In this document: positions 26,938 through 53,697 of the stretch, piece after piece | How the letters are laid out: the number at the start of each line of letters is the position of its first letter | How positions within the stretch are numbered: position 1 is the stretch's first letter | Source of the DNA: Marivivens aquimaris | GTDB lineage: Bacteria > Pseudomonadota > Alphaproteobacteria > Rhodobacterales > Rhodobacteraceae | Assembly: GCF_015220045.1 (NCBI RefSeq) | Contig: NZ_JADBGB010000003.1 | Location: 1-64,000, forward strand | Direction: 5' to 3' | Length of the DNA: 64,000 nucleotides | Position numbers and translations under genes: made by a program | Notes under the pieces: model-generated | Told to the model about the DNA's origin: nothing | Seen by the model: the letters and a program-made list of their open reading frames with translations, nothing else | Databases searched by the model: none

Positions 26938-27474
26938 AAATAGTGATATGCAACGATAATGCTAAAATGTCGCTAAACGCATGAGGCGGAGGGGTCAAGC
27001 AAAAGTCGGGATGCGACCCGCGTCTGGCATGCTGCGGGCGGCGTTGTGCGATGACCGTGCGACGTCTGCCGTAGCACCTTCAGCATTCGTCGCGGGGCAC
27101 CACACACCCTCCAAATGTCGGGATGCGCTTGGCGATGTGCTGCGGACGGACTGCAGGTGACGGATAGCGCGCTCCAGACGACGGGAGGCAGCCTCGCGTA
27201 TGTCGTTCTGCGGGTGACGCGAGACGGTTGGCACGCGGCAAAACCCGTCTTGCGGGGTGCAAGAGACGGGGCGCAAAAGATGCGATGCGCGATGCGGAGA
27301 CCGCATCGCGTGGTGCAATGAGCGCGAAGCGCGATCCATTTGACAAAGGACGGGAAATCGCCCCTGCAGGACAATTTTCTACATTGAGTACAAGCCCTTA
27401 TGGCCGACTCCACTTGCGTTGGGAGTCGGCGGGCTTGTACGAAGTTGGCAAGAAATAGGAACGTTAACTTCAAA
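26938..27474. other. Probable oriT / relaxosome assembly region
   Basis: This 537-bp gene-free stretch lies between the divergent virC1-like and mobC-like genes, the usual place for oriT. It contains several dyads: CCCGTCT/AGACGGG (27244-27270), CGCGATGCGG-aga-CCGCATCGCG (27288-27310) and the large hairpin at 27388-27440. The left part repeats GATGCG/GCGATG words many times. I cannot identify the nick site: no match to the RP4, R1162 or Ti nic consensus stood out by eye. Confidence 0.55.
27388..27440. repeat. Large bulged hairpin 35 bp before mobC
   Basis: GTACAAGCCC (27388-27397) and GCCGACTCC (27403-27411) pair with GGAGTCGGC (27422-27430) and GGGCTTGTAC (27431-27440). The only irregularity is a 5-nt bulge (TTATG) on the left arm; the loop is 10 nt. 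Such hairpins next to relaxase genes mark relaxase recognition sites or autoregulatory operators. Confidence 0.75.
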
Positions 27475-28062
27475 ATGCCCCGCCGTCGCAGACTGTCAGA
27501 GATCGAGCGATCGACCATCGCCCAGGAGCGCCGGAACGGCGTCTCCGCGGTGTCATTGGCCGCGCGCTACGATGTCAGCCTGAAGACGATCTACAACGTG
27601 GTGAACCACTGGGGTGAGCGTCAGACAGCGAACGACAGCCGGTCGCGGGTTGTGGGGATCCGGGTCTCGGAAGAGGACTTGCGCCGGTTCGACGCGGCGC
27701 TGTCGCGACGCGGGATCGCGCATCGCTCGGATGCCATGCGCCGTCTGATGCTGGCGGCCGAAGGTGTCTTCCTGCCCGACGACGAGTTGTGCGACGAGTT
27801 GCGCAGCCTCGGCGCCGCGCTCAACCGGGTCGGCAACAACGTGAACCAGATCGCGCGACGTCTGAACGAGGCCAAGGTGCGGGGTGAGAGACTGTCTTAC
27901 CCGGCCTCAAGTCACCGTGACGTCCGCGCCCTTGCGGGTCTGGTCTTCGATCTGGCCGACCAGGTCCAGGAGATGTCGCGGGCGCGTCGCAGCGTGCTGG
28001 ACCTTGAGATCAGCTCTGCCCTGGCGGGCCTCGCCGAGAGGGATGAGAATGGCGCGCAGTGA
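27475..28062 (+). CDS. mobC: MobC/VirD1-like relaxosome accessory protein
   Basis: The 195-residue protein begins with a transposase-like HTH (SEIERSTIAQERRNGVSAVSLAARYDVSLKTIYNVVNHW). A ribbon-helix-helix-like region follows (RVVGIRVSEEDLRRFDAALSRRGIAHRSDAMRRLM), then the MobC signature LRSLGAALNRVGNNVNQIARRLNEA. MobC proteins melt oriT so the relaxase can nick it. ATG 27475 is the first start after the large hairpin. It overlaps the relaxase gene by 20 bp, so the two are coupled. The extra N-terminal HTH is unusual for MobC. Confidence 0.85.
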   Translation: MPRRRRLSEIERSTIAQERRNGVSAVSLAARYDVSLKTIYNVVNHWGERQTANDSRSRVVGIRVSEEDLRRFDAALSRRGIAHRSDAMRRLMLAAEGVFLPDDELCDELRSLGAALNRVGNNVNQIARRLNEAKVRGERLSYPASSHRDVRALAGLVFDLADQVQEMSRARRSVLDLEISSALAGLAERDENGAQ

Positions 28063-30397
28063 CCGGGTCCGTGGCATCGACCCGGCGCTCTTTGACCGCG
28101 GCTGGAGCCGGGTTTCGGGATCCTGGCAGGGGCTTTCCAAGGGCGCGCAGATGGTTCGGGCCGCACGCGGCTATTCGCCAGCGATCTTCAAGGCTATCTC
28201 GAAAGGGGGCTGCCACACCGGGGCGCAGCTACGGGCGCAGCTCACATATCTCACGACGAAGTCGACCCATATCCTCGACAGCCGCGGCACCCATGACGGG
28301 AAGAAGCAGCTTTCGGAAGCCGAGATCAACCGAGTGGCGCGGCGGTTCGAGAACCAGTGGAACGAGCGCTACAGCCCCAAGCTTGGCCATACGTCGCATC
28401 TGCTGATGGCATTCCCGGTTGGGACCAGGGGTGAAGAGGTGCGCGATATCACCCAGGCGGTCTGCGAGAAGTTCTTTCAAGGTGAGGGGTCGCAATTCGA
28501 CTATATTGCTGCAATACACCAAGATCGCGCACATCCACATGCGCATATCGTTCTGAACCGCCGCAGCAAGGATGGCGAAATGTTCTTTCTCGGGAAGGAT
28601 CATCACTTCAACTACGACGCCTTTCGCGAGGGGATGGTCGAAGCGGCTAGGGGACATGGGATCCGCCTTGAGGCGACGCGTCGTCTGGATCGCGGCGTCA
28701 CGACCTACCGCGCCGAGATCGATGAAATCTACAAGGCCCGCGACGAAGGTCGTCCCCCAGTCGAGCGCCAGAGAACCGGCGCTGACCTGGCGGCCGCTCT
28801 GGAAACTGTCCGACAGAATGCCATGATCTATCGCGGGCTCGCGGCGGAGGCGTCACGCTCGAATTTCGAAGACGTGGCCGAGGCACTTGAGAGGGCCAGC
28901 ACCATCCTTGTCAGTGGCGGTCAGATTCAATCTGACGGAGCCATTTACATGTCCCAAGACGACACAGCATTCGACACGCTGATCACCGAGTTTTCTCAGA
29001 ACATTCGCCAGATCGAGGCGGCGATCGACAGGGCGCCGGCGGCCGAGAGGCCGGTGATCGAGCGCAAGCTGACCGACGTGCTGGCCTCGGTCGCGCATTT
29101 GAACCCGCTCGGGGATCGCTCCGCCGCCCTGATCGATGCCCCGTCCCGGGACGGCATTTATGCAAAGCCAAACGCCAGTGAAGATTACCTCGCGCGTCTT
29201 GACGGTGGAGAGGTGGCACCAAAGCTTGCCGAGGCGTTGCAAGGCACGGGCATCGGCGCCGGGGCAGTGGCCGCGCGTCTGCGGGAAGGGGCTGGCAATG
29301 CCGCATTGGAAACCCAGTGGCTGGCACAGGACCTACAGGCGATTGCCAAAGAAGGGGGACTCGATCTGGAGAAACCTGCGGAGAGGGAAGAAGCGCTCGA
29401 CCGGCTGGAAGCCGTTCATGTTCGGTTGGGCGATGTGCTGACCGACGTACGCGTCCTTCGCGCGCCAACCGAGATCGACGAGGTGGACAACGCTGAGCCA
29501 GCGCTTGGTGAGCAGTTGACGACACCTGGGAGGGATCTCGCGCAAGACGGGTCCGACATTTTTGCCCCATCGGAGCGGCAGGCGTTCAGAGCGCTGGTGG
29601 CGCAGTTCCGCCGGACGGATTTCGATCATCCGTTCTCCGACGACCCCTCTGTGCGGCGGACGGGCGCCGTGGAGGTGGAAGAAGCCCGCGCCGCGTTCGA
29701 CGTCTACGCGCAGAAATCGCCGCAACATGCTGAACTGGCCTCGATGGCCTGGGACCAGATGACCGACAGTCGAAAGCCGCCGCAATATGCGGTATCGGAG
29801 CAGGACCGCACGCTGCATGCTGGCGACATGGACCTCGCCTTGCGGGATCCCTCGGATCATCTCGGTCCGATCACCGAAGAGTTCCGCACCTTCGCCCGCT
29901 ATCGCACGGAGATGCCGGATGATGAATTCGGGCGGGCCGTTAGGGGCGAAATCAACCACCTTCGTTCGCTCGGCGCGTCGCGTGCCTATATCAGCGAGCG
30001 CAGTTTCGAGATCGAGGACCAGGCGCGACAAGACTTCGCCGAGCGCCGGTATATGGAAGAGACCGCCCCAACCGTCATGGCCTTTGTGCGAAACGCCGAA
30101 GGCGTGGCCCCGCTCTCTGAGGCGGAGCGGCACGACATCGTCCGTCAAGTGAACGAACGGCTCAGCCCAGATGCAATCGACGCGCTGCGGGCCGGCAACG
30201 CAGACGTCCTCGACAAGTTCACCGAAGATCCGCTGCGCCAGCTGGAACTTGCCAAGACCTATCTCCAGAGCAGCGAGGTGACCGCGCACGGCCCGACGAT
30301 GGAGCGCGTTCTCGATGCATTGGCGGAAGAACAGATAGAGGCGCAGCGCGCGCGCCACGCCGCGGCACATGGTGAGAAGGGGATCACCCATGGATAA
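28043..30397 (+). CDS. virD2: VirD2-like relaxase
   Basis: This 784-residue relaxase has its catalytic domain in the first 250 residues: QLTYLTTKSTHI with the probable nucleophilic Tyr, GHTSHLLMAFP (motif II) and the metal-binding triad HQDRAHPHAHIVLNRR (motif III). It should nick oriT, stay covalently bound to the 5' end and pilot the strand through the VirB pore. The long C-terminal part is acidic and helical, with no helicase or primase motif, and likely carries the translocation signal. Two in-frame ATGs (28043, 28049) are equally good. It overlaps the mobC stop and runs 8 bp into virD4. Confidence 0.9.
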   Translation: MRMARSDRVRGIDPALFDRGWSRVSGSWQGLSKGAQMVRAARGYSPAIFKAISKGGCHTGAQLRAQLTYLTTKSTHILDSRGTHDGKKQLSEAEINRVARRFENQWNERYSPKLGHTSHLLMAFPVGTRGEEVRDITQAVCEKFFQGEGSQFDYIAAIHQDRAHPHAHIVLNRRSKDGEMFFLGKDHHFNYDAFREGMVEAARGHGIRLEATRRLDRGVTTYRAEIDEIYKARDEGRPPVERQRTGADLAAALETVRQNAMIYRGLAAEASRSNFEDVAEALERASTILVSGGQIQSDGAIYMSQDDTAFDTLITEFSQNIRQIEAAIDRAPAAERPVIERKLTDVLASVAHLNPLGDRSAALIDAPSRDGIYAKPNASEDYLARLDGGEVAPKLAEALQGTGIGAGAVAARLREGAGNAALETQWLAQDLQAIAKEGGLDLEKPAEREEALDRLEAVHVRLGDVLTDVRVLRAPTEIDEVDNAEPALGEQLTTPGRDLAQDGSDIFAPSERQAFRALVAQFRRTDFDHPFSDDPSVRRTGAVEVEEARAAFDVYAQKSPQHAELASMAWDQMTDSRKPPQYAVSEQDRTLHAGDMDLALRDPSDHLGPITEEFRTFARYRTEMPDDEFGRAVRGEINHLRSLGASRAYISERSFEIEDQARQDFAERRYMEETAPTVMAFVRNAEGVAPLSEAERHDIVRQVNERLSPDAIDALRAGNADVLDKFTEDPLRQLELAKTYLQSSEVTAHGPTMERVLDALAEEQIEAQRARHAAAHGEKGITHG

Positions 30398-30565
30398 AGG
30401 CAAGATTGCCTTCGGAGTGTTGAGCCTCGTACTCGTCGGTCTCGCCATGGGCTATGTCGTGGCGACCGGCTTTGTCATGTTCCGCTATGGGCTTTCTCCC
30501 TCGCGTTTCGACGTCACCCTGCTTGCCCGCGAATATCGGGGTCTGTCTCAGTCTGCACCGAAGGA
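30390..30565 (+). pseudogene. virD4: virD4 5' fragment, cut by an IS256-family insertion
   Basis: The fragment starts MDKGKIAFGVLSLVLVGLAMGYVVATGFVMF, the first transmembrane helix of a VirD4/TraG coupling protein, and breaks after SQSAPK where the insertion begins. Removing the insertion and one 8-bp target repeat joins ...SAPK to DFLWVNLILGG in the same frame, giving a normal protein of about 660 residues. The gene overlaps the relaxase stop by 8 bp, so relaxase and coupling protein were one operon. Any transcript now meets the insertion first. Confidence 0.9.
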
Positions 30566-31958
30566 GGTCGTGTCTCGGAGATGGTGGAAATTTGAAGGCG
30601 GCGTAATCTCCGGGTGAACCAACACCCACCTAACCGGCGGCAGCAACCGCCAGGGAGATCACGCCATGAACCAGATTACTGATACTTCGAGCTTTGCGCT
30701 ACTGGCCCATGAGGCCGGGTTCGACCCGATCGAGGAGCGGTTGCGGATGAACATCCGCGCGACCATCGAGGCTGTGTTCGAGGAGGAACTGGCCGACTTT
30801 CTCGGCCGCCTGCGCTACAGCCGGGGCACCGGCGCGACGAAAGGCTATCGCCACGGACACCGGGAACGGCAGCTGACCGGCACTTTCGGGACCGAGACGG
30901 TGCGGGTGCCGCGCGCCCGGATTGAGGACGAAACGGGAAGGCTGACGGAATGGCGGTCGAAGGCGCTGCCCCGATACCAGCGCTTGACCAAGAAGGCCGA
31001 GGCCTTGATCGCCGCGGTCTATCTCTCCGGCACCAACACCCGGCGCGTCAAGCGAGCGTTGTTCGGGCTGTTCGAGGGCGCTGTGAGCAAGGACGTGGTC
31101 AGCCGGGCCTGGCGCAAGGTGGAGACGGACTGGGATGCGTGGTGCGCCCGCAGCCTCGCCGATGAGGACATCGTCCGGCTCATTCTCGATGGTACCGTGA
31201 TCAAGACCCGCATCGATAAGAAGGCGACGAACATCTCAGTGCTGGCCGCCATCGGTGTGCGCCGCGACGGTCAGAAGGTGCTGCTTTCCATCAAGAATAT
31301 GGGCGGGGAGAGCACCGCCGCGTGGCGCCAGTTCCTCGACGATCTTGATGCCCGCGGCCTGAAACGGCCCGAATTCGTGATTGTCGATGGCGCCCCGGGG
31401 CTGGAGGCTGCGCTCGTGGGGTTGTGGGGCGATGATCTGCCGATCCAGCGCTGCACGGTTCACAAGCACCGTAACCTTCTGGCCCATGCCCCGAAGCACA
31501 TCCACGACGAGCTGACCGAAGACTACCGGGACATGATCTATGCCGACACCGCAGTCGAGATCGAGAAAAGGCGCAGGGCATTTCTCCGCAAGTGGCGCCT
31601 GAAGTGCAGGGCCGTCGCCGATAGCCTGGAGGAGGCTGGCGACCGGCTCTTCACCTTCGCCCGCCTTGATCCCTCGCAATGGAAATCCGCCCGTACCACC
31701 AACGCCATCGAGCGCCTCAACGAGGAGTTCCGTCGCCGTATCAAGACACAGACCGTGTTGCCCTGCGCCAAGACCGTGCCGATGCTCCTCTGGGCTCTGC
31801 TGGCCTCAGGCCAGATCCAGATGCGCAAGGTCGACGGCTGGGAGACCCTCTCTAAGCCTCTCGAACCCATGCCCCTTGACCTCGCAGCCTAAAACATCGA
31901 TCCATCACATGCCCGGAGCGCGCCGCTAGGGAATTTCCACAGCATTCGCGACACGACC
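30566..31958 (+). mobile_element. IS256-family insertion sequence, 1393 bp
   Basis: The left end GGTCGTGTCTCGG... (30566) and the right end read inward GGTCGTGTCGCGA... (31958) are inverted repeats of about 27 bp with 21 matches, both continuing to GTGGAAATT. The insertion is flanked by the 8-bp direct repeat CCGAAGGA at 30558-30565 and 31959-31966, a usual target duplication length for the family. The single transposase gene lies inside. Intact ends, duplication and coding frame indicate a recent insertion. Confidence 0.93.
30666..31892 (+). CDS. IS256-family transposase
   Basis: The 408-residue DDE transposase is full length for the family. The catalytic residues are visible in LILDGTVI (first Asp, near 172), FVIVDGAPGLEA (second Asp, near 239) and AIERLNEEFRRR (Glu, near 347); the CTVHKHRNLL segment is a family hallmark. 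CAGGGAGA precedes ATG 30666. It is the only gene in the element and shows no damage, so the element should still be able to move. Confidence 0.96.
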   Translation: MNQITDTSSFALLAHEAGFDPIEERLRMNIRATIEAVFEEELADFLGRLRYSRGTGATKGYRHGHRERQLTGTFGTETVRVPRARIEDETGRLTEWRSKALPRYQRLTKKAEALIAAVYLSGTNTRRVKRALFGLFEGAVSKDVVSRAWRKVETDWDAWCARSLADEDIVRLILDGTVIKTRIDKKATNISVLAAIGVRRDGQKVLLSIKNMGGESTAAWRQFLDDLDARGLKRPEFVIVDGAPGLEAALVGLWGDDLPIQRCTVHKHRNLLAHAPKHIHDELTEDYRDMIYADTAVEIEKRRRAFLRKWRLKCRAVADSLEEAGDRLFTFARLDPSQWKSARTTNAIERLNEEFRRRIKTQTVLPCAKTVPMLLWALLASGQIQMRKVDGWETLSKPLEPMPLDLAA

Positions 31959-31976
31959 CCGAAGGACTTCCTCTGG

Positions 31977-33773
31977 GTGAACCTCATCCTTGGCGGCTTC
32001 GGCCTGGCATCGCTGATGCTGAGTGTCACGCTTCTGGGGGATGCATTGACCCGCTTCGGGACGACGCATTGGCAGACCCGCGGTGAGATGAAGAGGAACG
32101 GTTTCTTTGCCAAACCCGGTGGCGGCTTCCTTCTGGGCAAGCTCGGCTCCCCGAAGTCCAAGCGCCCGTTCCTTGTCTCAAAAACCTTCCCCCACGCACT
32201 GATTGTGGCGCCTACAGGCCGCGGCAAGGGCGTGGGATTTGTGATCCCGAACCTGCTGACCTACAAGGGCTCGGCCGTGGTGCTCGACGTGAAAGGCGAG
32301 AACTTCCGCGAGACCTCGCGCTTCCGCGCCAGCATGGGGGACAAGGTTTTCCGCTTCGCGCCGACCGACTGGGACCGACCGACACATCGCTACAACCCGC
32401 TGGCGCGCATCGCGGCCATGACCAACCCCGACCGGCAGCAGATGGAGCTGAAGCTCACCGCCAAGCTCTTCCTGCAGACCGACAATGAAAAGCTGAGCGG
32501 GCTTTTGGCCGGGGGTATCGACCTCTTCGTGGCGGCCGGCCTTCTGGCCTTCGAGCGCGGCGTGCCGACCATCGGCGAGATCTATCGCATCACAGCCTCG
32601 GGGGGCGACAAGCAGAAGGAATACCTGAAGCGTTCACAGGAGGTGAAGAACAAGTCGGCCAAACTGATCTTCGAACGTATGGCATCGACCAACAACGACA
32701 CCCTCACTTCCTACCTCTCCCTCCTGATGACATCGGGCCTCGACACTTGGGACAACCGCGCGATCGATGCGGCCACCGCGACATCTGACTTCTCGTTCCG
32801 GGATATCCGGCGGCGGCCGCACGCGATCTACCTCGTGGTCGAATCCGAGATGATCCGCCCACTGGCTCCGTTGATCCGTCTCTTTTTCTCGGACCTGATC
32901 GCCTCGCTGCAGGCGCAGGAACCTGGTGATGACGAGCCTTGGCCGGTGATGATCATGCTCGACGAGTTCGACAGGCTCGGGAAAATGCCGATCGTCGCCG
33001 AGAGCATCAAGACGCTGCGTTCTTTCGGCGGCAACCTCGCCATCGTGACCCAGACGATCCCCGCGCTGGACGAGATCTATGGTGAAAACACCCGCAGGTC
33101 GCTGCAGGGCGGCGCCGGGGTAAAGCTCTACCTCACCCCGTCTGAGCAGAAGACCATCGAGGAATTGAGCCAGGCTGTCGGCAAGACCACCAAGCGTGTG
33201 GTGACCCGCTCCCGTGCTGTCGGGCGCAATCCGTTCGAAGGGCGCAGCGTCTCGGAGCGAACAGAAGATACCCCACTCCTGACAGAGGATGAGGCCCGGC
33301 GCATGGACCTTGACGAGGTCATCCTTGTGATCGACGCGCAGATGCCGATCCGCGCGAGAAGGGTGAAGTATTTCGAGGACCCGGCGCTCAAGGTGCTGCA
33401 CGCGGGCCAGTCGGGGAGTTTCCCGTATCCGGACGAGGACGGTCTTCGGCGGGATCGACAGATGTCCGAGACTCGGGAAACGGTGGAGAGGCTGAAGCAA
33501 GAACTGCAGGAAGTGCGGGCGGCTGCAGGCGCAAATGGTTCTGGGGTAGCGACCTCACCGGCAACGGCGGAGATGCCCGCATCGAATACGCAGAGTTCCA
33601 CGCCTTCGCGGCCAAATCGTGCGCGGGGTCGAGCAGCTCGCGCGGGAGCTAGTGGAGTTGGGCCAGTGCAGTTGTCATTTGATCCGGTGGGGCTGGGGCT
33701 CAAGGAGCCGGATAGGGCCGCGCTGGCGGCGGCAGTTCAAACGACGCGAACGATCATTGAGGCACATGTATGA
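31977..33773 (+). CDS. virD4: VirD4/TraG coupling protein, 3' part separated from its start
   Basis: This holds all of the cytoplasmic ATPase of the type IV coupling protein: APTGRGKGVGFVIPNLL (Walker A, near residue 70), VVLDVKGENF, and VMIMLDEFDRLGKMP (Walker B), plus the second transmembrane helix (VNLILGGFGLASLMLSVTLLG) at its very start. The natural frame begins at 31967 right after the target repeat. GTG 31977 could restart translation, giving about 598 residues without the first membrane helix. A Ser/Pro-rich tail ends at 33773 as ATGA with a following 59-codon frame that runs into the cargo block. Function in transfer is doubtful. Confidence 0.9.
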   Translation: MNLILGGFGLASLMLSVTLLGDALTRFGTTHWQTRGEMKRNGFFAKPGGGFLLGKLGSPKSKRPFLVSKTFPHALIVAPTGRGKGVGFVIPNLLTYKGSAVVLDVKGENFRETSRFRASMGDKVFRFAPTDWDRPTHRYNPLARIAAMTNPDRQQMELKLTAKLFLQTDNEKLSGLLAGGIDLFVAAGLLAFERGVPTIGEIYRITASGGDKQKEYLKRSQEVKNKSAKLIFERMASTNNDTLTSYLSLLMTSGLDTWDNRAIDAATATSDFSFRDIRRRPHAIYLVVESEMIRPLAPLIRLFFSDLIASLQAQEPGDDEPWPVMIMLDEFDRLGKMPIVAESIKTLRSFGGNLAIVTQTIPALDEIYGENTRRSLQGGAGVKLYLTPSEQKTIEELSQAVGKTTKRVVTRSRAVGRNPFEGRSVSERTEDTPLLTEDEARRMDLDEVILVIDAQMPIRARRVKYFEDPALKVLHAGQSGSFPYPDEDGLRRDRQMSETRETVERLKQELQEVRAAAGANGSGVATSPATAEMPASNTQSSTPSRPNRARGRAARAGASGVGPVQLSFDPVGLGLKEPDRAALAAAVQTTRTIIEAHV

Positions 33774-36368: not shown

Positions 36369-36370
36369 GG

Positions 36371-37135: not shown

Positions 37136-37152
37136 TGTTTGGCCCCTATAAT

Positions 37153-37272: not shown

Positions 37273-37368
37273 TATCGAAAGAGATGTCAATAAGTCGATT
37301 GATTGATCGCAACACACCGGAAACCGGCATCAAGCCGTGGGATCCGGGCCAAGTTTGAAAGGTAGAAG

Positions 37369-39859: not shown

Positions 39860-39923
39860 ACGATAACGGGGTTCGGCAGGGATGCCTGCTGGACCTAGCC
39901 CTGCGGTTTGCCACGGAGCGATC

Positions 39924-43363: not shown

Positions 43364-44389
43364 TCACTGGGACAACCTCTTCGCCCTCTCCGACATTCTG
43401 ACCAGGTGTGCACTGGCGGTTGTGGCTGCCGCTCGTACAACTGCTGGACCCTGTGCTACGCCTCGCCCAATACCCTCACCGGTGGTCAGCGCGCCGATCC
43501 GTGATCTACCCTTGACGCCAGCTGTGTTAAAGAGTCCGCGCATGATCCCACTAGATCCAGCAACAACTGCGGGCGCGGCCGCAACCATCAGGTTTCCCGA
43601 GATACCACGCACGATCAGGGGCGTTGCTGCCACAAATCCCTTCGCCAGAAACACCATCACGAAGAACGGCACGAGCGATCCGATATTGGTTGCGGAGTTC
43701 GGATCACCGAGCTGGGCTAGCAGCGAATTCGCCATGCCGACAACGGTCGAGAACATGGCTGCGATGACGATGGGGTAGAAGGCGTAGCTGATCGTTGTCG
43801 AGACCCATCTGTGAAAGAAATCCTTGGTCGCATCGAAGAGCGACAGCGCGATCATGATCGGCGCGAGCCCGAGCATCAGGGTCAGCATCATCTTAGCAAA
43901 GATGAGGACGATGCCGGTCATGAAGCCGAGCAGGCTGAGGAGCACGAGGCCAATCCCACCTAGGATCGCGCCGGTCATCCAGTTCAGATTGCTGCCGATC
44001 GCGTTCAGATATGTCGCGAAGCGCTCGATCAGGTTGTCGAACTCTCCTGCGAAATGGGTGGCACCTGCCCCTGCTCCACCGACTGACGACACCAGCGCGC
44101 CGGCGACATAGTCGAGGCCCCCGATCACGGCATTGGCGACCGCGTTGAAGTTGGCCCAATTGAAGGCGAACAGGCCGATCAGCATCAGCTTAATGAGATA
44201 CCAGAAGAAGCTGGCCCCATCCATGCTTCGGAACTGGAAGGCCATGTTGATGCAGACGCCGATCAGCGAGAGTGTGACCATCAGCAGGACGATCGTGCCG
44301 GTATTGCTCGCCACGGCCCCGAACTGAGACTCGGCCGCATCGACAAGGAAACCGTCAGCGGTTTCGACCATCCAGCTGACCACGCTCAT
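43364..44389 (-). CDS. virB6: VirB6/TrbL-like inner-membrane channel protein
   Basis: This 341-residue protein has at least six hydrophobic segments, including TIVLLMVTLSLIGVCINMAF, YLIKLMLIGLFAFNW, GAILGGIGLVLLSLLGFMTGIVLIF and LVPFFVMVFLAKGFVAATPLIV. The DFFHRWVSTTISYAFYPIVIAAM segment is typical of VirB6. It forms part of the inner-membrane translocation channel. Here it comes last in the operon instead of between virB5 and virB7, and its start abuts the small periplasmic protein gene. The C-terminus is short and basic. Confidence 0.88.
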   Translation of the reverse strand: MSVVSWMVETADGFLVDAAESQFGAVASNTGTIVLLMVTLSLIGVCINMAFQFRSMDGASFFWYLIKLMLIGLFAFNWANFNAVANAVIGGLDYVAGALVSSVGGAGAGATHFAGEFDNLIERFATYLNAIGSNLNWMTGAILGGIGLVLLSLLGFMTGIVLIFAKMMLTLMLGLAPIMIALSLFDATKDFFHRWVSTTISYAFYPIVIAAMFSTVVGMANSLLAQLGDPNSATNIGSLVPFFVMVFLAKGFVAATPLIVRGISGNLMVAAAPAVVAGSSGIMRGLFNTAGVKGRSRIGALTTGEGIGRGVAQGPAVVRAAATTASAHLVRMSERAKRLSQ

Positions 44390-44808
44390 TACCAGTTGCC
44401 TTGTGCTTCACAGAGATCCTGTACTGCGTGGCGCAGATCATTGCGCTGCTGCCTGATGTCCCGCTGCGCTGCTGTATGTTCCGCAGCAGAGGCCAGGAGG
44501 TACCTTTCCTCGAATTCTTCCGAGGCCTCTTCCCATCCCGGGAAGCGGACGTCGCAGTCACAGTTGCCAGTCTCGACGATCTGTTCCCATGCCCGCAGCT
44601 CGTAGAGGTCCATCAGAGTCAGTGCCTTGTAGGCCTCGCGTGGGTGGACCTCGTCCATCCAGGTCGGACGTGCTGGCCGGTCGTTGCAGATCCGGTACTG
44701 TTGGGGCGAAATGGTGACGGTGAGGTCGTTCGTCACCTGAGGCGCGGTCTGGGCCGCGAGGGGCGCGGCCAGCAGGGTGACAGCGGCGGTGAGGGTGATC
44801 TTGCGCAT
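44389..44808 (-). CDS. Small periplasmic protein of the virB operon
   Basis: The 139-residue precursor has a clear signal peptide (MRKITLTAAVTLLAAPLAAQ) and a mature part with four Cys (ICNDRP, NCDCDV, DLCEAQ) and a charged helical end (RDIRQQRNDLRHAVQDLCE). ATG 44808, behind AAAGGAAA, is preferred to ATG 44829, which overlaps the virB11 stop. It lies between virB11 and virB6. I do not recognise the family; a role in stabilising the outer part of the secretion channel is plausible from its position only. Confidence 0.75.
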   Translation of the reverse strand: MRKITLTAAVTLLAAPLAAQTAPQVTNDLTVTISPQQYRICNDRPARPTWMDEVHPREAYKALTLMDLYELRAWEQIVETGNCDCDVRFPGWEEASEEFEERYLLASAAEHTAAQRDIRQQRNDLRHAVQDLCEAQGNW

Positions 44809-44825
44809 GGGGATTTCCTTTCGGT

Positions 44826-45860
44826 TCATTCGGCCGCGACCGTGGGGCGCTCGGCACCCCCGGCTGGACCCGTGTTCTGGTCTGGATGTCTCGCCTGCCC
44901 CGGCAGGAAGAACTCGGTGATGCCGCGGGCGCCATTATGACGGCCGGCCTGAATGATCACGTCGATCGAGCCCTCGATGTAGTCCACCATATCGGCATAG
45001 GTCATCGGCACATCGGTTTTCAGGGCGGCGATGGCGAGGCGGCGAACAGCAAGTTGTGGGGTCTCGGCATGCAAGGTGGTCAGCGAGCCGCCATGCCCGG
45101 TGTTGATCGCTTCGAGGAAGGTCATGGCCTCGCGACCCCTAACCTCACCCAGCACGATACGGTCGGGCCGCATCCGCAGGGTGGAGGCCAGAAGTACATC
45201 GGCGTTGCGGGCGTCTGCGTCGCGATCTGCGATCAGCGTCACGGCATTCGGCTGCTCGGGCCGCAGCTCAGCTGCCTCCTCGATCGTGATGATCCGTTCC
45301 TCGGGCGGGATCAGCGAGAGGATCTTGCGCGCCGCGACCGTCTTGCCGGTCGAGGTGCCGCCCGAGACGATCATGTTGAGCTTGTTCTCGACGCAGAACC
45401 GCAGGGCGGCGTCGATATCGCCGGAGGCCACCACATCGCGCAGCGCGGCGTTGCGTTCGCGACGCAGCCCTTCGAGGCTGCGCTCCTTGCCATACAGGAA
45501 TCCGAGCCTGATGCCCTCCAGCGGCAGGGAGGAGAAGAACCGAAGTGAGATGGAGAACCCGCCCTCGACGGCGGGAGGCTGGATCACCTGCGCCCGGATC
45601 GGACGATCCCGGTAGAGGATCGAGACCGAGACGATGGGCTTCTTGGTGCTGAGCGTGGTCGAGGCGGCCGAGGCGATCTGGTTGCCAAGATCCTTGATCT
45701 CGGTCTGGGTGAGCGGGATGCCGAGGCCCCGCATGAAGTGATCGCCCTGTAACTCGCCCCAGACCCGCCCGTCGGGGTTGATGCAGATCTCGATCGTGTC
45801 GTCCCGATGCACAGGCGCGCCTAGACGGTCGAGCGAGGCTTCGAGATAGCTCGCCGCCAT
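44826..45860 (-). CDS. virB11: VirB11 secretion ATPase
   Basis: The 344-residue traffic ATPase shows NMIVSGGTSTGKTVAARKILSLIP (Walker A), ITIEEAAELRPEQ (Asp box), LRMRPDRIVLGEVRGREAMTFLEAINTGHGG (Walker B and His box). It assembles as a hexamer at the cytoplasmic base and drives pilus assembly and substrate transfer. ATG 45860 starts one base after the virB10 stop; the in-frame extension upstream is rejected because it overlaps virB10. The C-terminus carries a short Pro/Gly-rich tail. Confidence 0.95.
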   Translation of the reverse strand: MAASYLEASLDRLGAPVHRDDTIEICINPDGRVWGELQGDHFMRGLGIPLTQTEIKDLGNQIASAASTTLSTKKPIVSVSILYRDRPIRAQVIQPPAVEGGFSISLRFFSSLPLEGIRLGFLYGKERSLEGLRRERNAALRDVVASGDIDAALRFCVENKLNMIVSGGTSTGKTVAARKILSLIPPEERIITIEEAAELRPEQPNAVTLIADRDADARNADVLLASTLRMRPDRIVLGEVRGREAMTFLEAINTGHGGSLTTLHAETPQLAVRRLAIAALKTDVPMTYADMVDYIEGSIDVIIQAGRHNGARGITEFFLPGQARHPDQNTGPAGGAERPTVAAE

Positions 45861-45861
45861 G

Positions 45862-47187
45862 TCAGAAGATCTCCAGGTCGCGGTCGACCATGACCGTGAT
45901 CCGCGTGCCTTGTTCGACATGGATTACTGGCCGGATCGTCAGATAGTCCTGCATCACGCTTTGCGTGCTGTCGCGCAGGTCCGTACCGACATCGCTCGCA
46001 ATATCGGCGGCGGCTTCATCCTCGATCTGTCCGGCTGCTGCTGCAGGTAATACCCCGATCAGCGAAATAAGCGCGGCCGAGCTGAAGCGCTGCGCGAAAC
46101 GCGTGTCGACAAATCCGGTGGTACCGGTACGGCCAAGTTCGTCACCCCCGAAGGCGCTGATCTGCACGGTCTGATTGTCGGGCAGGATGATCCGATCCCA
46201 GGCCACCATGACCCGCGACTGTGCCAACGCGACATCGGAGCGGTAGCGCCCCACGAGACGCGCGCCGCGCGGAATCAGGACGCGCGTGCCGTCAAAGGAA
46301 TGGACGTCTTCGGAGACGATGGCGCGGATCGCGCCGGGCAGTGTGCTGTCGAGGGCCGTCTCTGTCACAGCCTGAATCATGGTGCCCTGAACAACCGTGT
46401 TCGATGGGTTCGCGATCACTTCGGCACGTGTCACCTGTGCTGGTTGCGCGCCCGAACGAACAAAGGCTTCATCTGCATTCAGACGCGCGGCTTCCAGCGT
46501 ATTCTCCCTATCCGCACCCGCGCCCATCCCCGAGAAGGCGATCATAGGAGACGCGATGCGCTCTGCGCGGGCCTCGGCTTCGGCTGCGCGCCGCCTTTCG
46601 AGTTCGGCCAGCCGCAATTCTTCTTCACTTGGTCCCAATGAGGTCGGCTCTGGTGGTGCAAGCCGTGCAAGCTCCAAGTCCATGCGGAGCTGATCCAATT
46701 CGCGATCCCGCTCGGTCAGCTGCCGCTCGAGGGCACGCTGCGCCTCGGCGGATGCTTCCTGTAAGGTGGCAATTTGCGCCGTCAGGTCCGCAATAGCCTG
46801 CTCCGCCCCGCTATCCGCGGCCTCGGCCGGTCTTGCGCGCAGTTCCTCGAGTTCCGCTCTCAATGTCGCAAGACTTTCCATCAGCGCGAGTTCAGACTCG
46901 CTCGGACCTGTGTCCGCAGGCGGGGCTTGGCTGGGCTCCGGGGTAGAAATCGGCGCCAGATCTCCGAATCCGGGGCCGCTGCTCTGGAACTCTTCCGGCG
47001 CGGCGGTCGCCATTGGTGCTTCTGCCGACGGCTGTAGCGCAGCCCACGCCAGACCACCTGCTGCCGCGATGCCGACGACCCCAAGGATCGCGGCAAGCGG
47101 CGCAGGCCGCTTGTTGGCCTTCGCTTTGCCAGTCGAGCCTTCGAGAGCCGCGAGGCGCGCGGCGAGGTCTTCCGTACCTTCGGTCAT
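45862..47187 (-). CDS. virB10: VirB10 channel-spanning protein
   Basis: This 441-residue protein has one N-terminal membrane helix (LAAILGVVGIAAAGGLAWAAL), a Pro/Ala-rich periplasmic region, a Glu/Arg-rich coiled-coil segment (ERQLTERDRELDQLRMDLELARL) and the C-terminal VirB10 beta-barrel domain: TVVQGTMIQAVTETALDSTLPG, RGARLVGRYRSDV, and the antenna region FVDTRFAQRFSSAALISLIGVLPAAAAG. It links inner and outer membrane parts of the channel. ATGA overlap with virB9 fixes the start at 47187. Confidence 0.95.
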   Translation of the reverse strand: MTEGTEDLAARLAALEGSTGKAKANKRPAPLAAILGVVGIAAAGGLAWAALQPSAEAPMATAAPEEFQSSGPGFGDLAPISTPEPSQAPPADTGPSESELALMESLATLRAELEELRARPAEAADSGAEQAIADLTAQIATLQEASAEAQRALERQLTERDRELDQLRMDLELARLAPPEPTSLGPSEEELRLAELERRRAAEAEARAERIASPMIAFSGMGAGADRENTLEAARLNADEAFVRSGAQPAQVTRAEVIANPSNTVVQGTMIQAVTETALDSTLPGAIRAIVSEDVHSFDGTRVLIPRGARLVGRYRSDVALAQSRVMVAWDRIILPDNQTVQISAFGGDELGRTGTTGFVDTRFAQRFSSAALISLIGVLPAAAAGQIEDEAAADIASDVGTDLRDSTQSVMQDYLTIRPVIHVEQGTRITVMVDRDLEIF

Positions 47188-47885
47188 GATGTGGCCTGTC
47201 CTGCGTCCTGGACGCAAACCACCTCTTCGCCAAGGCGAAGGACCCATTGTCGGTTGACGCCGGACACGCGGATGACGCCGTCACTCAAGGCCTGGCTGTT
47301 GACCGCGCGTTCCCTGCCGTTCGAATATCGGAAGATGGCGGGCACCGGCGCGTTCCGTGAAAACCGGAAATACGTAAAGGTACCATCATCCCAGATGGCC
47401 GTCGGCGTGAACTCTTCTCGGGCACTGACCGCATAGTTCGCGTTCGGCGCATCGGCCGCAACCGCCTTGGTGGGTTGCACGCGGTTTTCAGGATAGCGGA
47501 ACTGCACGACATAGTGCGGCGTCTCCCGGGCTTCGACGACATGGAAGTAGTAGGAGCGGCGGTTGGTGTAGACGGTGATGTTTGTGGCGACGCCAGACGC
47601 TGTTGGTTTGATGGCGAAGGCGCGGCCACCCGGGACACCGTCGAATTGAAATCCTACCGTATCGCCGGCGATGATCGAACGGATGGTTTCACCCTCACCG
47701 AATTCGACTGTGGTGACGCGGGTCAGAGTCGTGACGACACGGTAAACTTGGCCTTCGGTCCAGGACGCCACGCGCACGCGATTGTCGTGAGAACCTGGGC
47801 GGGGCGTGGTCTCGGCCAAGGCAGTTGTTCCCGCGAACGCGAGAATACTGGCAGCCAACAGGGTAGTGATTGGAGTACGGGTCAT
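47184..47885 (-). CDS. virB9: VirB9 outer-membrane channel component
   Basis: The 233-residue precursor has a signal peptide (PITTLLAASILAFAGTTALAE). The N-terminal VirB9 domain reads QVYRVVTTLTRVTTVEFGEGETIRSIIAGDTVGFQ and NITVYTNRRSYYFHV; the C-terminal domain reads PTAIWDDGTFTYFRFSRNAPVPAIFRY. With VirB7 and VirB10 it forms the outer-membrane core ring. ATG 47885 overlaps the virB8 stop (ATGA), and its own stop overlaps the virB10 start, so translation is coupled on both sides. Confidence 0.95.
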   Translation of the reverse strand: MTRTPITTLLAASILAFAGTTALAETTPRPGSHDNRVRVASWTEGQVYRVVTTLTRVTTVEFGEGETIRSIIAGDTVGFQFDGVPGGRAFAIKPTASGVATNITVYTNRRSYYFHVVEARETPHYVVQFRYPENRVQPTKAVAADAPNANYAVSAREEFTPTAIWDDGTFTYFRFSRNAPVPAIFRYSNGRERAVNSQALSDGVIRVSGVNRQWVLRLGEEVVCVQDAGQATS

Positions 47886-48547
47886 TCGGAACGGTCCGAT
47901 CGGATTGCATATTGGGTGACGGTGAAGCCGAACGGGTTTTGCCAGACATCGTCGATCGCACGGGTTCGCTCGGGCTGGAAATCGAACATCAGCGTCACTG
48001 TGAACGATCCATCCTGTGCCCCTTGCGGGCTGGTCAGACGCTTTCTGAGACGCACTTGGGCGCGGTTCTCGCCAATAAGGGTGATCGACGCGATCTCGAC
48101 GGCCATTTCTGCCGCCGGCCCATATCGTGTCGGCGGATAGCTCTCCTGCCCTGACGTCCACATCGCGCGCATGCTGGCCTCCGCCGCCCCGGAGGACTGA
48201 GCCAGAACGCGGCGGACACGAAGATCGTTGTCGAGCTGGTTGTAGGTCTCGCGGTCGAGAATGTAGCGGTAGATTTGCGCCTCGATCACGGCGGGCCGTT
48301 CCGCAAGTGATACGGTTTCGACCGTGGCGTTCGGCAGGGCCAAGCCCGTCGCGGGATCATAGGGTACGACGACCGGTAGGGGCGTCTCGACCATCAGGGC
48401 GACGACCGCGGCCGCAAGGCAGCCCAAGACGCCGAAACCCGCCCCGCCAAGCCCGATCATCCGCCAGAGGTGTTCCCGGCGCAGCGCGCCATGGATCAGT
48501 TCCTCTTCCACGAATTCGCGCGCACTCACCCTCAATGCCCCGCTCAT
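47882..48547 (-). CDS. virB8: VirB8 assembly factor
   Basis: The 221-residue protein has a cytoplasmic N-terminus, one membrane helix (MIGLGGAGFGVLGCLAAAVVALMV) and a periplasmic NTF2-like domain with RYILDRETYNQLDNDLRVRRVLAQSS and IASITLIGENRAQVRLRKRL, then NPFGFTVTQYAI. VirB8 nucleates assembly and contacts VirB9 and VirB10. Its ATG overlaps the virB5 stop by 4 bp. Family and operon position agree. Confidence 0.94.
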   Translation of the reverse strand: MSGALRVSAREFVEEELIHGALRREHLWRMIGLGGAGFGVLGCLAAAVVALMVETPLPVVVPYDPATGLALPNATVETVSLAERPAVIEAQIYRYILDRETYNQLDNDLRVRRVLAQSSGAAEASMRAMWTSGQESYPPTRYGPAAEMAVEIASITLIGENRAQVRLRKRLTSPQGAQDGSFTVTLMFDFQPERTRAIDDVWQNPFGFTVTQYAIRSDRSE

Positions 48548-49341
48548 GGTTGAAGCTCCGGCAAAGTGAAGTCCATGTAGCGCTGTTCTTCAGCGATGGT
48601 TGCGGCATCGACGAGACCGGTATTGCCTGCGCCAAGAGTCTGGATGGCTTCAAGCTCCCACATGCGCGTGAGGGCGATGGCAAGCTCCGCCGTCACGCGG
48701 GTGTTGTGGTCCATGGACGCCTTCAGATCTTCCATATCCGGGATCATTTCGACCAGACGTTCGACGCGCTCAAGAGATTGTTCCGCCTCTGCGTGGCTGT
48801 TCTGCGCCGCCGCTGACATCACAGCACCTGTGGTTGCCCGCGTGGCGACACCTTCCGCGCCCGGATTGCCGCTGGTGGCGATTTCGCGAAGTGAATCTTC
48901 GTCAAACCCGGCACTTGCCAGAGCCTGTTCCATCTGCGAGCGCATGGGCCCGGCATTTGGCCCGATCAGAGCACTCCAATCGCCCGCCTGGACCCCTCGG
49001 ATCAGGTCGGGAATGTCGGCCAGATCGGTTTCGAGCAGGTTGTCGAGATCACCGCCCATGGCGAGGCCGAGTATGCTACGCGGCCCGGTGAGGGAGGCAT
49101 ACATCTCGTTCAACTGTTGGAGCTGGCCTTGCAGCGTCTCAAGCTGCGCAAGCGCATTGTCCAGAAGGTCGGTCTGAATCCCGAAATCCTGCAGCATCTG
49201 CTGAAGCTGGCGAATTTCCTGAGCAATGTTCTGGGTGTCCACCGTGGGCACACCCTGTGCCGCGGCAGGTCCAGTGACCGTTAGGGCAAGCGCGAGAGCG
49301 ATGCTACCGGCGAAAAGGGAACGGGGCGGGCGCAGGTTCAA
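48544..49341 (-). CDS. virB5: VirB5-like pilus-associated protein
   Basis: This 265-residue secreted protein starts at TTG 49341, which overlaps the upstream stop (TTGA) and follows AGGAGG at good spacing; upstream frame belongs to another gene. The signal peptide ends GPAAAQ, and the mature part is a helical coiled coil (IRQLQQMLQDFGIQTDLLDNALAQLETLQGQLQQLNEMYASLTG). It resembles VirB5/TrbJ minor pilins that sit at the pilus tip. Its mature N-terminus (AQGVPTVD) and C-terminus (RYMDF) match those of the gene upstream, so the two are paralogues. Confidence 0.88.
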   Translation of the reverse strand: MNLRPPRSLFAGSIALALALTVTGPAAAQGVPTVDTQNIAQEIRQLQQMLQDFGIQTDLLDNALAQLETLQGQLQQLNEMYASLTGPRSILGLAMGGDLDNLLETDLADIPDLIRGVQAGDWSALIGPNAGPMRSQMEQALASAGFDEDSLREIATSGNPGAEGVATRATTGAVMSAAAQNSHAEAEQSLERVERLVEMIPDMEDLKASMDHNTRVTAELAIALTRMWELEAIQTLGAGNTGLVDAATIAEEQRYMDFTLPELQP

Positions 49342-50516
49342 CGCAAATCCTCCTGACTGAAATCCATGTATTGCCGCTCCGCGGCTTGAGCCGCGGCCAA
49401 GGCGATTTGCTCGGCGCTGAGTGGCTCGATTTGGGCGGCCCTGATCCGGGTCCGGATTGCGACCAGCCGGGCAAGCTCGGCCCGGGCATAGGTGTTGAGT
49501 GCGATGGCCTCGTGCAGGTCTTCGGTTTCGCCAATGCGGGTGATGATGTCCTGAACGCGCAAGGCTGCCGCACGTACCGAGACCAGCGAATAATCGCCAT
49601 AGACGCCCGCGCCATGGGCCGAGAGGCTGAAGCTCGCGTTCGCCAAAAGGACAGGGTCGATGGTGCCGAGCGCATCGATGCCACCCACGGCGGCGAGATA
49701 GCTGTTGTATTGCTGCGGGATCACCACAACGTAATGCTGGGTTTCCGCGAAGGGCGGGATGCCGCCGTAGTTCTGAACGTTGCCCGGGCCTGCGTTGTAA
49801 GCGGCAAGCGCATGTATGATGTTGCCGTCGAACATGTTCAGCATCTGCGCGAGGTAGCGCGCGCCGCCAGTGACCTGCAGCCAGGGGTCGTCGTAATAAG
49901 CCGGGTAGATCCCGAGATCGCCCGCGGTGCCGGGCATGATTTGCGTGAGGCCAAACGCCCCAACGGGGGAGCGCGCGCCGATCTGGAAGCGGCTTTCCTG
50001 CCAGATCAGCGCCTGCAGCAGGCAGCGCCATTGCACGAGAGAGAGGCCTGCGCGGCTTACGCCGGGCAGGCTATGGGTGTGACGCGCCGCGCGGATGATG
50101 AGTTCCTCGATCCCTTCTCGGGCATCGCCGAACATCCGGGCCGCGGCCGGGTTGTTATCCTCGGGCGCATAGAGGCTGGCCGCAGCACTCTCGACGTCAC
50201 CAACAACCCCCTGCCCCGCCTCGAGCCCGGCCACGGTGCCTGCGACATCGCCGGAGCCGAGGGACATGGCATCCATCAGCCCTTCGAGGGAGGCGAGTTG
50301 CTGACGCTCGATCTCGGCCAGTTCCTCCACGCGGCTTAGCCGGTCCTGCTGCAGTGCCAGGTCCCGATCAGTCTGCTCAAGGATCGCCTGCCGCTCTGCG
50401 AAGAGGCGCAGATCGAAGGTTGGCACGCCTTGGGCGACCGCTGGCCCCGCCGTGGGACCTGCCAGTGCAAAGCCGATCATCGAGAGAGGAAGCCAGGTCC
50501 GCATGCGCTTAGCCAC
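49338..50516 (-). CDS. VirB5-like protein with embedded lytic transglycosylase domain
   Basis: The 392-residue precursor has a signal peptide ending GPAVAQ and a VirB5-like coiled coil (residues about 30-75). An SLT domain follows at about 155-260 with the catalytic Glu in IWQESRFQIGARSPVGAFGLTQIMPGT and AAYNAGPGNVQNYGG. A further helical segment ends AAERQYMDF. The flanks match the neighbouring VirB5 (AQGVPT start, YMDF end), so this looks like a VirB5 duplicate with a wall-cutting domain inserted. It could open peptidoglycan at the growing pilus. A separate VirB1-type enzyme also exists in the operon. Confidence 0.88.
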   Translation of the reverse strand: MAKRMRTWLPLSMIGFALAGPTAGPAVAQGVPTFDLRLFAERQAILEQTDRDLALQQDRLSRVEELAEIERQQLASLEGLMDAMSLGSGDVAGTVAGLEAGQGVVGDVESAAASLYAPEDNNPAAARMFGDAREGIEELIIRAARHTHSLPGVSRAGLSLVQWRCLLQALIWQESRFQIGARSPVGAFGLTQIMPGTAGDLGIYPAYYDDPWLQVTGGARYLAQMLNMFDGNIIHALAAYNAGPGNVQNYGGIPPFAETQHYVVVIPQQYNSYLAAVGGIDALGTIDPVLLANASFSLSAHGAGVYGDYSLVSVRAAALRVQDIITRIGETEDLHEAIALNTYARAELARLVAIRTRIRAAQIEPLSAEQIALAAAQAAERQYMDFSQEDLR

Positions 50517-50724
50517 CCGCTCCCAGCATCACGAAATCGCAGACCGTGTCGCGGCGCGTAACCTCAGCCTCTATGGTTGAGATCGTCGTCGTGGCAGCAG
50601 CCGTCTGCGCGGGCGCATCGCGGAAGTTGAAACAGTTGGCCAGACGGGGCTCATGTTGCGCACAGGCCGTCAGGGTCAGGCCAAGGCCAAGCAGCACTGC
50701 GCTGCGGGTGATTGTACGGGTCAT
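50509..50724 (-). CDS. virB7: VirB7-like lipoprotein
   Basis: The 71-residue precursor has a lipoprotein signal (SAVLLGLGLTLTAC) with Cys at position 21 as the lipid anchor, and two further Cys in the mature part (NCFNF, TVCDFVMLG). VirB7 lipoproteins tether the VirB9 ring to the outer membrane, often through a disulfide. The ATG overlaps the virB4 stop (ATGA) and its end overlaps the next gene. Assignment rests on lipobox, size and position. Confidence 0.82.
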   Translation of the reverse strand: MTRTITRSAVLLGLGLTLTACAQHEPRLANCFNFRDAPAQTAAATTTISTIEAEVTRRDTVCDFVMLGAGG

Positions 50725-53105: not shown

Positions 53106-53373
53106 AGCTGTCGCCCCCGTGCAGCTTGCGGTTCGTCGTGGGCGGGGTTTCTTGCAAGGTGATCACCAGGACATCGAGAAAGTTCGGATCCCAGTCCGCG
53201 GCCTTCCAGAGCGCCGGCCAGGCCAGTCCCGCGAACAATGCTACCACCCAGCTCTGCACCCAGAGGAACAGGAGCGTCGAGCCGAAGAGCCAGACCATGG
53301 CGTACATGATCGGCAAGCCCATCAGCTTGGGTGGCCTGAGAAGGCCGATGAACACGCGGGACTGGTCAGCCAT
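53095..53373 (-). CDS. virB3: VirB3 inner-membrane protein
   Basis: The 92-residue protein opens RVFIGLLRPPKLMGLPIMYAM, the VirB3 signature, with two hydrophobic helices (YAMVWLFGSTLLFLWV, SWVVALFAGLAWPALW) and a short cytoplasmic end. VirB3 anchors VirB4 to the membrane. It lies between virB2 and virB4 as in canonical operons, 9 bp after the virB2 stop. Confidence 0.93.
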   Translation of the reverse strand: MADQSRVFIGLLRPPKLMGLPIMYAMVWLFGSTLLFLWVQSWVVALFAGLAWPALWKAADWDPNFLDVLVITLQETPPTTNRKLHGGDSYAP

Positions 53374-53382
53374 TGATGGACC

Positions 53383-53697
53383 TCAGGTGGTCCAGATGGC
53401 GGCGACGATTGTGGGAGCCGCGGCGATGCCCGCGATCGCGACCACCACCCAGAGCGCCTGACGGAAATCGAGGATGCCAAAGAGCCAGGAAAGGAACACC
53501 CCGATCAGCGCCAGCGTTCCGATCACTATCCCCAAGGGACCGGTGATCGCATCGACGATGCCTTGAAGCAGGGTCTGCACCGGCGAGAGGTCGATGCTCT
53601 GCGCGAGCGCTGGACCCGCCAGCACGATAAGGGCTATCGCGCCGAGCGCGACGGTCGCCCGCGTGCGGAGCACGCTTTGACGTTTCCTCGATGTCAT
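53383..53697 (-). CDS. virB2: VirB2/TrbC-like major pilin
   Basis: This 104-residue precursor has a long signal sequence (RATVALGAIALIVLAGPALAQ) and two hydrophobic helices joined by a short polar loop (ITGPLGIVIGTLALIGVFLSWLFGI, LDFRQALWVVVAIAGIAAAPTIVAAI), the pattern of VirB2/TrbC pilins. After processing it polymerises into the conjugative pilus. ATGA overlap with virB1 fixes the start. Confidence 0.92.
   Translation of the reverse strand: MTSRKRQSVLRTRATVALGAIALIVLAGPALAQSIDLSPVQTLLQGIVDAITGPLGIVIGTLALIGVFLSWLFGILDFRQALWVVVAIAGIAAAPTIVAAIWTT

What the first reader, a model, noticed from the sequence alone, without database searches (positions are those of the whole stretch)
30390..33773. 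Coupling-protein gene virD4 interrupted by a fresh IS256-family insertion
The IS has intact ends, an intact transposase and an exact 8-bp target repeat (CCGAAGGA). Its removal restores a 660-residue VirD4. All other transfer genes look intact, so the element may be a recently disarmed conjugative system or may use the GTG 31977 restart product.
Basis: seen in the sequence. Interest (0 to 1): 0.78.

Follow-up and report, generated by a model that had tools for sequence, protein, structure and literature searches.

The report
Jumping gene breaks plasmid coupling gene
A mobile DNA element has landed inside the gene for the protein that feeds DNA into this plasmid's transfer machine, probably disarming it, but another plasmid in the same cell carries an unbroken copy of a closely related transfer system that could do the job for both.

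Summary
A 1,393-bp IS256-family element (30566-31958) with intact ends and transposase frame sits in virD4, flanked by an exact 8-bp repeat. Ten relatives show the empty site: the two window pieces overlap on them by exactly those 8 bases. The break falls between the two membrane helices; the 3' piece shows no decay. The other transfer genes of the window are intact.

No second virD4 lies on this replicon (C3, 173 kb), but four other contigs of the genome hold one. The one on C5 belongs to a closely related full system (88-94% DNA identity) with intact virD4; its virB1 is frameshifted while C3's is intact. So C3 has most likely lost autonomous transfer but can be served by C5's VirD4 (inference; precedent in F plasmids, PMC10939261).

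virD4 is also hit elsewhere in this plasmid family: four other independent element insertions, all within the first 219 of 651 codons. An excess over other transfer genes is suggestive, not proven. Overall: an ordinary IS hit in an interesting setting.

The parts
27400..28062 (+). mobC, relaxosome protein gene, first of the mobC-relaxase-virD4 run (start codon not settled)
   Evidence: PF05713; 95% aa identity to Leisingera MobC
28049..30397 (+). MOBP (VirD2-like) relaxase gene, intact; longest ORF opens at 27884
   Evidence: PF03432 2e-12; 94% over 782 aa to Leisingera
30390..30565 (+). 5' stub of virD4: first membrane helix and most of the loop, codons 1 to about 59
   Evidence: 95% to Leisingera VirD4 residues 1-59; hydropathy
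30558..30565 (+). left copy of the 8-bp target repeat CCGAAGGA
   Evidence: shared 8 bp on empty-site relatives; the octamer is native in 13 of 76 relatives
30566..31958 (+). IS256-family insertion sequence, 1,393 bp, one copy found in the genome
   Evidence: ends and length; at best 86.9% identical element on plasmid records; copy number
30666..31892 (+). IS256/Mutator-family transposase, 408 aa, same direction and frame as the virD4 remainder
   Evidence: PF00872 4.7e-69
31959..31966 (+). right copy of CCGAAGGA; contains AAGGA, a possible ribosome site for GTG 31977
31959..33773 (+). 3' remainder of virD4: second membrane helix and ATPase part; open frame, no decay
   Evidence: PF02534 5.8e-83, PF12696, PF10412; 0 private residues in 501 core codons
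31977..33773 (+). possible restart product, GTG start, 598 aa, lacking the first membrane helix
   Evidence: frame and start check
43364..54377 (-). virB cluster (equivalents of virB1-6 and virB8-11 by names in relatives; no virB7 named), intact
   Evidence: gene-by-gene tblastn and ORF check; names

Best explanation
An IS256-family element inserted, probably recently, into virD4 of a conjugative plasmid with a RepC gene in a Rhodobacteraceae-type bacterium, in the loop between the two membrane helices (insertion shown; position by hydropathy). The plasmid's own coupling protein is thereby lost or nearly so (inferred). The relaxase, mobC and virB genes are intact (shown by sequence), and another plasmid-like contig of the same genome, C5, encodes a closely related system with an intact virD4 (shown). 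C3 therefore most likely persists as a plasmid that cannot feed its DNA to the channel by itself but can be exported, through its own or C5's channel, with C5's VirD4 (inferred). Conversely C3 could supply an intact VirB1 to C5, whose virB1 is frameshifted (inferred).
For: Insertion and target repeat. Interrupted frame. VirD4 domains intact downstream. Intact C5 VirD4 of 651 aa. C3-C5 DNA identity: 93.9% over the ParA-mobC-relaxase stretch, 94.3% over virD4 after the site, 88.2% over virB; the stretch before mobC, where oriT is expected, 484 of 508 aligned bases. Both virB sets present. RepC on both contigs, matching the family with different strength. In print: coupling proteins without their membrane domain non-functional (PMC7431656, passages); a plasmid lacking traD is transferred with TraD from a co-resident plasmid even between distant F plasmids (PMC10939261, part 1 of section 23); homologous sister plasmids of Dinoroseobacter shibae both conjugate (PMC4886583, passages).
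Against: No transfer data. The restart product could keep some function. In the 47 genomes a second full-length VirD4 (58% identity or more) is not clearly commoner where virD4 is broken by an element or truncated (3 of 5) than where it is intact (18 of 41; Fisher p 0.65; 3 of 6 if a frameshifted MAG is counted), so complementation does not explain virD4 loss in general; none of the broken cases there has an intact same-family VirD4 beside it.
Confidence: 0.66

Rival explanations
1. The GTG-31977 restart product (598 aa) is made and works, so the insertion is nearly silent: it anchors by the second helix alone and still couples relaxosome to channel.
For: AAGGA 10 bases before the GTG; no other ATG, GTG or TTG in frame between the transposase stop and it; transposase and virD4 remainder lie in the same direction and frame; 0 private residues in 501 core codons. 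The codon is GTG in 65 of 76 relatives. A TcpA mutant lacking its membrane domain but keeping its N-terminal residues still transfers at reduced rate (PMC7431656, passages).
Against: TMD-less TrwB, PcfC and MobB are non-functional (PMC7431656, passages). The start codon sits at the second helix, so the cytosolic N-terminus, first helix and loop are all lost. AAGGA is present in only 15 of 76 relatives, so no conserved internal start is seen. No promoter-like site was found in 30300-32100, though only a sigma-70 consensus was tested. Lack of decay is also expected if the insertion is simply young.
Confidence: 0.12
2. C3 is simply a dead-end plasmid: own VirD4 lost, C5's VirD4 not used for it, C3 kept only by vertical inheritance.
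For: Transfer genes are lost in relatives too: in Alterinioella nitratireducens only codons 1-82 of virD4 and 1-308 of 794 of virB4 were found; Salipiger bermudensis has relaxase and virD4 but no VirB4 match at 1e-60. R. litoralis pRLO149_83 lost virD2, virD4 and several virB genes (PMC9426580, passages).
Against: Close relation of the C5 system and of the DNA before mobC; rest of the C3 transfer set intact, virD4 remainder without decay.
Confidence: 0.18
3. Assembly artefact, or a mixed population in which most plasmid copies lack the element.
For: Not testable without reads; the held assembly gave no 16S rRNA match, so it may be incomplete or masked.
Against: Exact 8-bp target repeat, intact element, one copy found in the genome: a collapsed repeat would hardly be resolved inside a 173-kb contig.
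Confidence: 0.04

Closest known systems
Roseobacter RepABC plasmids with virB/virD2-virD4 T4SS (Dinoroseobacter shibae pDSHI01/pDSHI03; Martelella mediterranea pMM259)
   Same: Same modules; the pMM259 VirD4 is 88% identical to C5's, and its system was described as conserved with the conjugative D. shibae sister plasmids (PMC5613091, passages; PMC4886583, passages). Two related plasmids in one cell have precedent there.
   Different: In the D. shibae pair both systems are described as complete; here one has an interrupted virD4 and the other a frameshifted virB1.
IS256-family elements; nearest with a name on plasmid records: ISPko2 (Paracoccus kondratievae)
   Same: Mutator-type transposase, terminal inverted repeats, 8-bp target repeat; 82.3% DNA identity over 99% of the element
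   Different: Best match found is only 86.9% (Paracoccus zhejiangensis), so probably an unnamed element; ISfinder was not available.
Transfer-defective F-like plasmids rescued by co-resident plasmids
   Same: Loss of one transfer gene, here the coupling protein, with an intact one on a co-resident plasmid (PMC10939261, part 1 of section 23)
   Different: Different T4SS lineage; rescue here is inferred, not measured.
[not shown]
   Same: Same gene, same plasmid family, first 219 codons
   Different: Other elements at other codons (143-219 instead of 59).

Membership tests
IS256 family of insertion sequences | Mutator-type (Transposase_mut) transposase | tested here: met
   PF00872 4.7e-69 over residues 18-381
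IS256 family of insertion sequences | terminal inverted repeats and 8-9 bp target duplication (size recalled) | tested here: met
   ends begin GGTCGTGTC on both sides; CCGAAGGA twice; empty-site relatives
IS256 family of insertion sequences | transposition activity | not testable with these tools
   needs an excision or circle assay
VirD4/TraG-type coupling protein (T4CP) | T4SS-DNA_transf nucleotide-binding domain | tested here: met
   PF02534 5.8e-83 in the 3' remainder alone
VirD4/TraG-type coupling protein (T4CP) | N-terminal domain with two membrane helices on one polypeptide | tested here: not met
   helix 1 lies in the stub (residues about 5-32), helix 2 in the remainder (about 58-84), separated by the element; by hydropathy only. 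The intact C5 protein has both.
VirD4/TraG-type coupling protein (T4CP) | couples relaxosome to channel in mating | not testable with these tools
   needs mating assays
Self-transmissible MOBP / MPF_T plasmid | relaxase, mobC and virB set | tested here: met
   MOBP/MPF_T typing is that of relatives in PLSDB, C3 itself was not typed
Self-transmissible MOBP / MPF_T plasmid | uninterrupted coupling-protein gene on the same replicon | tested here: not met
   one PF02534 place on C3, and it is the interrupted gene
RepABC plasmid | RepC gene | tested here: met
   PF03428 at C3:158462-158902, cut-off passed
RepABC plasmid | repA and repB beside repC; circular replicon | not tested
   no end overlap was found on C3, so circularity is not shown

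The most novel reading that the evidence does not exclude
In this plasmid family virD4 is a preferred and tolerated point of loss because coupling proteins, unlike inner-membrane channel parts, can be borrowed from other plasmids in the cell. The window's plasmid and C5, with reciprocal lesions (virD4 here, virB1 there), are a natural pair drifting into mutual or one-sided dependence. That no other copy of the IS was found in the genome hints that C3 was hit in an earlier host and reached this one with a borrowed coupling protein.
Probability: 0.13. Interest if true: 0.6.

Novelty: new member of a known kind. Interest (0 to 1): 0.36.

Why it matters
It shows a conjugative plasmid at the point of losing autonomy, in a cell where the missing part is encoded by a related plasmid, which makes helper dependence directly testable in an environmental system. 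It also points to virD4 as a repeatedly hit transfer gene in one plasmid family, which bears on how conjugative plasmids turn into hitch-hikers. Gene-content typing may miss this: three relatives recorded with a broken virD4 (two by frameshifts in G runs, one by Tn3) are typed 'conjugative' in PLSDB.

Tried and rejected
A second virD4 on C3: none found. Other copies of the IS: none found in the own genome or in 6 congeners. Co-residence of another VirD4 as the general reason for virD4 loss: not supported (3 of 5 broken against 18 of 41 intact genomes with a second full-length VirD4 of 58% or more, p 0.65; two further intact genomes show only pieces; an earlier script, used 16 of 41 and left out two genomes with a second same-family gene). 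Two same-family systems in one cell, in the 37 systems: one broken in 2 of 3 such cells against 4 of 31 others, p 0.07; single status of the 31 was not checked in each genome, and one search used slightly different counts (p 0.13). virD4 against VirB4 in the same 47 genomes: insertions in 4 of 47 against 0 of 43 intact-callable VirB4, p 0.12; if two VirB4 genes cut at contig ends were insertions, p 0.68. The fuller lesion count (5 of 9 lesions in virD4 without the window, p 0.002) includes two frameshifts in G runs that could be sequencing errors and two truncations in draft genomes; these tests are post hoc. Outward sigma-70 promoter: none found. ISPko2: 0 papers. PDB relatives at 1e-5 by sequence: one, Cag5. 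Literature on virD4 disruption in this group: 14 papers; 2 papers; of these I saw passages of PMC5613091, PMC4886583, PMC9426580 and PMC6209633. They hold one printed virD4 loss (R. litoralis pRLO149_83, by deletion) and no IS in virD4; the other papers were seen as listings only, as were those except PMC7431656 and PMC10939261. This does not show that none is in print.
Full report
What is there. The window is bases 1-64000 of contig C3 (173,392 bp) in a 4.05-Mb genome of 7 contigs. Three genomes of its family hold contigs of exactly the length of named plasmids (Pukyongiella litopenaei p2, Roseicitreum antarcticum pRA02, Marinibacterium anthonyi pLA6_006), which places it among the Rhodobacteraceae and their kin; no 16S rRNA was matched in the held assembly. 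C3 carries RepC at 158462 and, in the window, MobC, a VirD2-like relaxase, an interrupted virD4 and a virB cluster.

The insertion. virD4 begins at ATG 30390. At 30566 a 1,393-bp element begins that shares GGTCGTGTC at both ends, encodes a 408-aa Transposase_mut protein (PF00872, 4.7e-69) and is flanked by CCGAAGGA on both sides. Aligned to ten intact relatives (L008-L016, L037), the left piece ends and the right piece begins so that exactly these 8 bases overlap. The octamer itself occurs at that place in 13 of 76 relatives, so it is a native target. One copy of the element was found in the genome and none in 6 other genomes of the genus. Its best match on plasmid records is 86.9% (Paracoccus zhejiangensis); the nearest with an element name is ISPko2 at 82.3%.

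What it does to VirD4. Hydropathy puts helix 1 at about residues 5-32 and helix 2 at about 58-84; the element falls at codon 59, at the end of the loop between them. The 5' piece runs to a stop at 30617 (75 codons). The 3' piece is open to 33773; between the transposase stop and GTG 31977 there is no ATG, GTG or TTG in frame. The transposase is in the same frame and direction as the remainder. A restart at GTG 31977 (598 aa) has AAGGA 10 bases upstream, but would lack the N-terminus, helix 1 and the loop. Published coupling proteins without their membrane domain (TrwB, PcfC, MobB) are non-functional, although one TcpA variant keeps reduced transfer (PMC7431656, passages). The remainder has 0 private residues in 501 core codons compared with 73 relatives (mean of the others 1.36), so it has not decayed; youth and selection both explain this.

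The related plasmid in the same cell. PF02534 finds five VirD4-type genes in the genome, one each on C3-C7. The C5 one is intact (651 aa from L004:1129) and belongs to a full set with MobC, relaxase and virB genes, 90-100% identical in protein to the Leisingera system; those of C3 are 88-99% identical to it apart from two small ORFs at 65% and 77%. C3 and C5 as wholes differ: 47,130 of C3's 173,392 bases align (pieces of 300 bases or more). Within the transfer region DNA identity is 93.9% from the ParA-like gene to the virD4 start, 94.3% over the rest of virD4 and 88.2% over virB. The stretch before mobC, where oriT is expected (expectation recalled), is identical in 484 of 508 aligned bases. 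In C5, virB1 carries a short deletion that shifts the frame, not in a homopolymer; C3's virB1 is intact. Sister plasmids with such systems in one cell are known and conjugate in Dinoroseobacter shibae (PMC4886583, passages), and pMM259 of Martelella, whose VirD4 is 88% identical to C5's, was likened to them (PMC5613091, passages). That a plasmid lacking its coupling protein can be exported with that of a co-resident one, whereas inner-membrane channel parts are not exchangeable, was shown for distant F plasmids (PMC10939261, part 1 of section 23). Hence the best explanation: C3 has lost its own coupling protein and can be served by C5. The last step is inference.

Is virD4 hit more often? Two surveys were made, which overlap in part. 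virD4 is broken in 6 of 37: the window (IS), Actibacterium pNS6003 (Tn3 at codon about 180), Frigidibacter pcai42A and Mameliella pKUB112 (frameshifts in G runs), G213 (only codons 1-82 found) and G325 (codons before 134 missing). Of the other genes, virB1 is broken in 2 of 32 (C5, Mameliella), virB10 in 1 of 32 (pAMI8), a 139-aa ORF in 1 of 32 (Sagittula); relaxase in 0 of 36, mobC in 0 of 35, virB4 and the remaining virB genes in 0 of 31 or 32. Not found at all in the stretches taken: virB in 5 systems, relaxase and mobC in G325, mobC in Pukyongiella. Other rows flagged there are second transglycosylase hits, short or distant ends, or region edges; in G325 some virB matches are of a more distant kind (52-63%).

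Reading of the surveys. With the window there are five independent element insertions in virD4 (the two Actibacterium cases share one Tn3 site), at codons about 59, 143-146, 171-175, 179-183 and 215-219. Without the window, four in the first 219 of 651 codons has a chance value of 0.013. The virD4 share of lesions in survey (a) without the window is 5 of 9 (p 0.002), but the direct comparison with VirB4 in survey (b) is not significant (p 0.12). These tests are post hoc and some lesions are uncertain. A co-resident second VirD4 is not clearly commoner in broken cases (3 of 5 against 18 of 41). I take virD4 as a recurrent target, not as a proven hot spot.

Verdict. The insertion itself is an ordinary event. 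What raises it above routine is the related plasmid with an intact coupling protein in the same cell, the reciprocal virB1 lesion, and the recurrence of virD4 hits in relatives. Drug resistance was looked at only in passing: of 34 window frames scanned (24 against Pfam; 10 against NCBIfam), none passed a cut-off of a drug-resistance family; one ORF (8352-12737) matched an Erm model at 20 bits against a cut-off of 350.

What changed on checking. 

Noticed in passing
G000:C5:99284-99959 (L048): virB1 on C5 is frameshifted by a short deletion outside any homopolymer, while C3's virB1 is intact.
   Followed up: partly
window 34441-42908; L037, L094, L095, L113: The gap between virD4 and virB is a cargo site with different contents in these relatives: decarboxylase, dehydrogenase and transport genes in the window, ATPase genes, Qat, CBASS and others elsewhere.
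   Followed up: no
window 19492-21674: CBASS-like pair: cGAMP-activated phospholipase over its NCBIfam cut-off and a weaker cGAS-like match below its cut-off.
   Followed up: no
window 61797-63365: ADP-ribosylglycohydrolase domain fused behind a dual-specificity-phosphatase-like domain in one ORF.
   Followed up: no
L168; L063 7389-11720: The same Tn3 element sits at the same virD4 codon in two Actibacterium strains, so a plasmid with broken virD4 was inherited or spread in that genus.
   Followed up: partly
L196 / G430: Alterinioella nitratireducens: relaxase intact, virD4 found only to codon 82 and virB4 only to 308, a transfer system in decay.
   Followed up: partly
G433 (L200): Salipiger bermudensis has intact relaxase and virD4 of this family but no VirB4 match at 1e-60: the mirror image of the window's lesion.
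   Followed up: no
L062, L106, L061: Length changes in G runs frameshift virD4 in Mameliella pKUB112 and Frigidibacter pcai42A; sequencing error or real slippage cannot be told apart here. Mameliella's virB1 is broken too.
   Followed up: partly
L191 genome (G426:C62:25504-30142): Mameliella MMSF_3455 holds a second, fragmentary copy of the module: relaxase 1-333 and virD4 444-650.
   Followed up: no
L185: A record titled Enemella evansiae carries this Rhodobacteraceae-type plasmid system at 95% relaxase identity; possibly contamination or a mislabelled contig.
   Followed up: no
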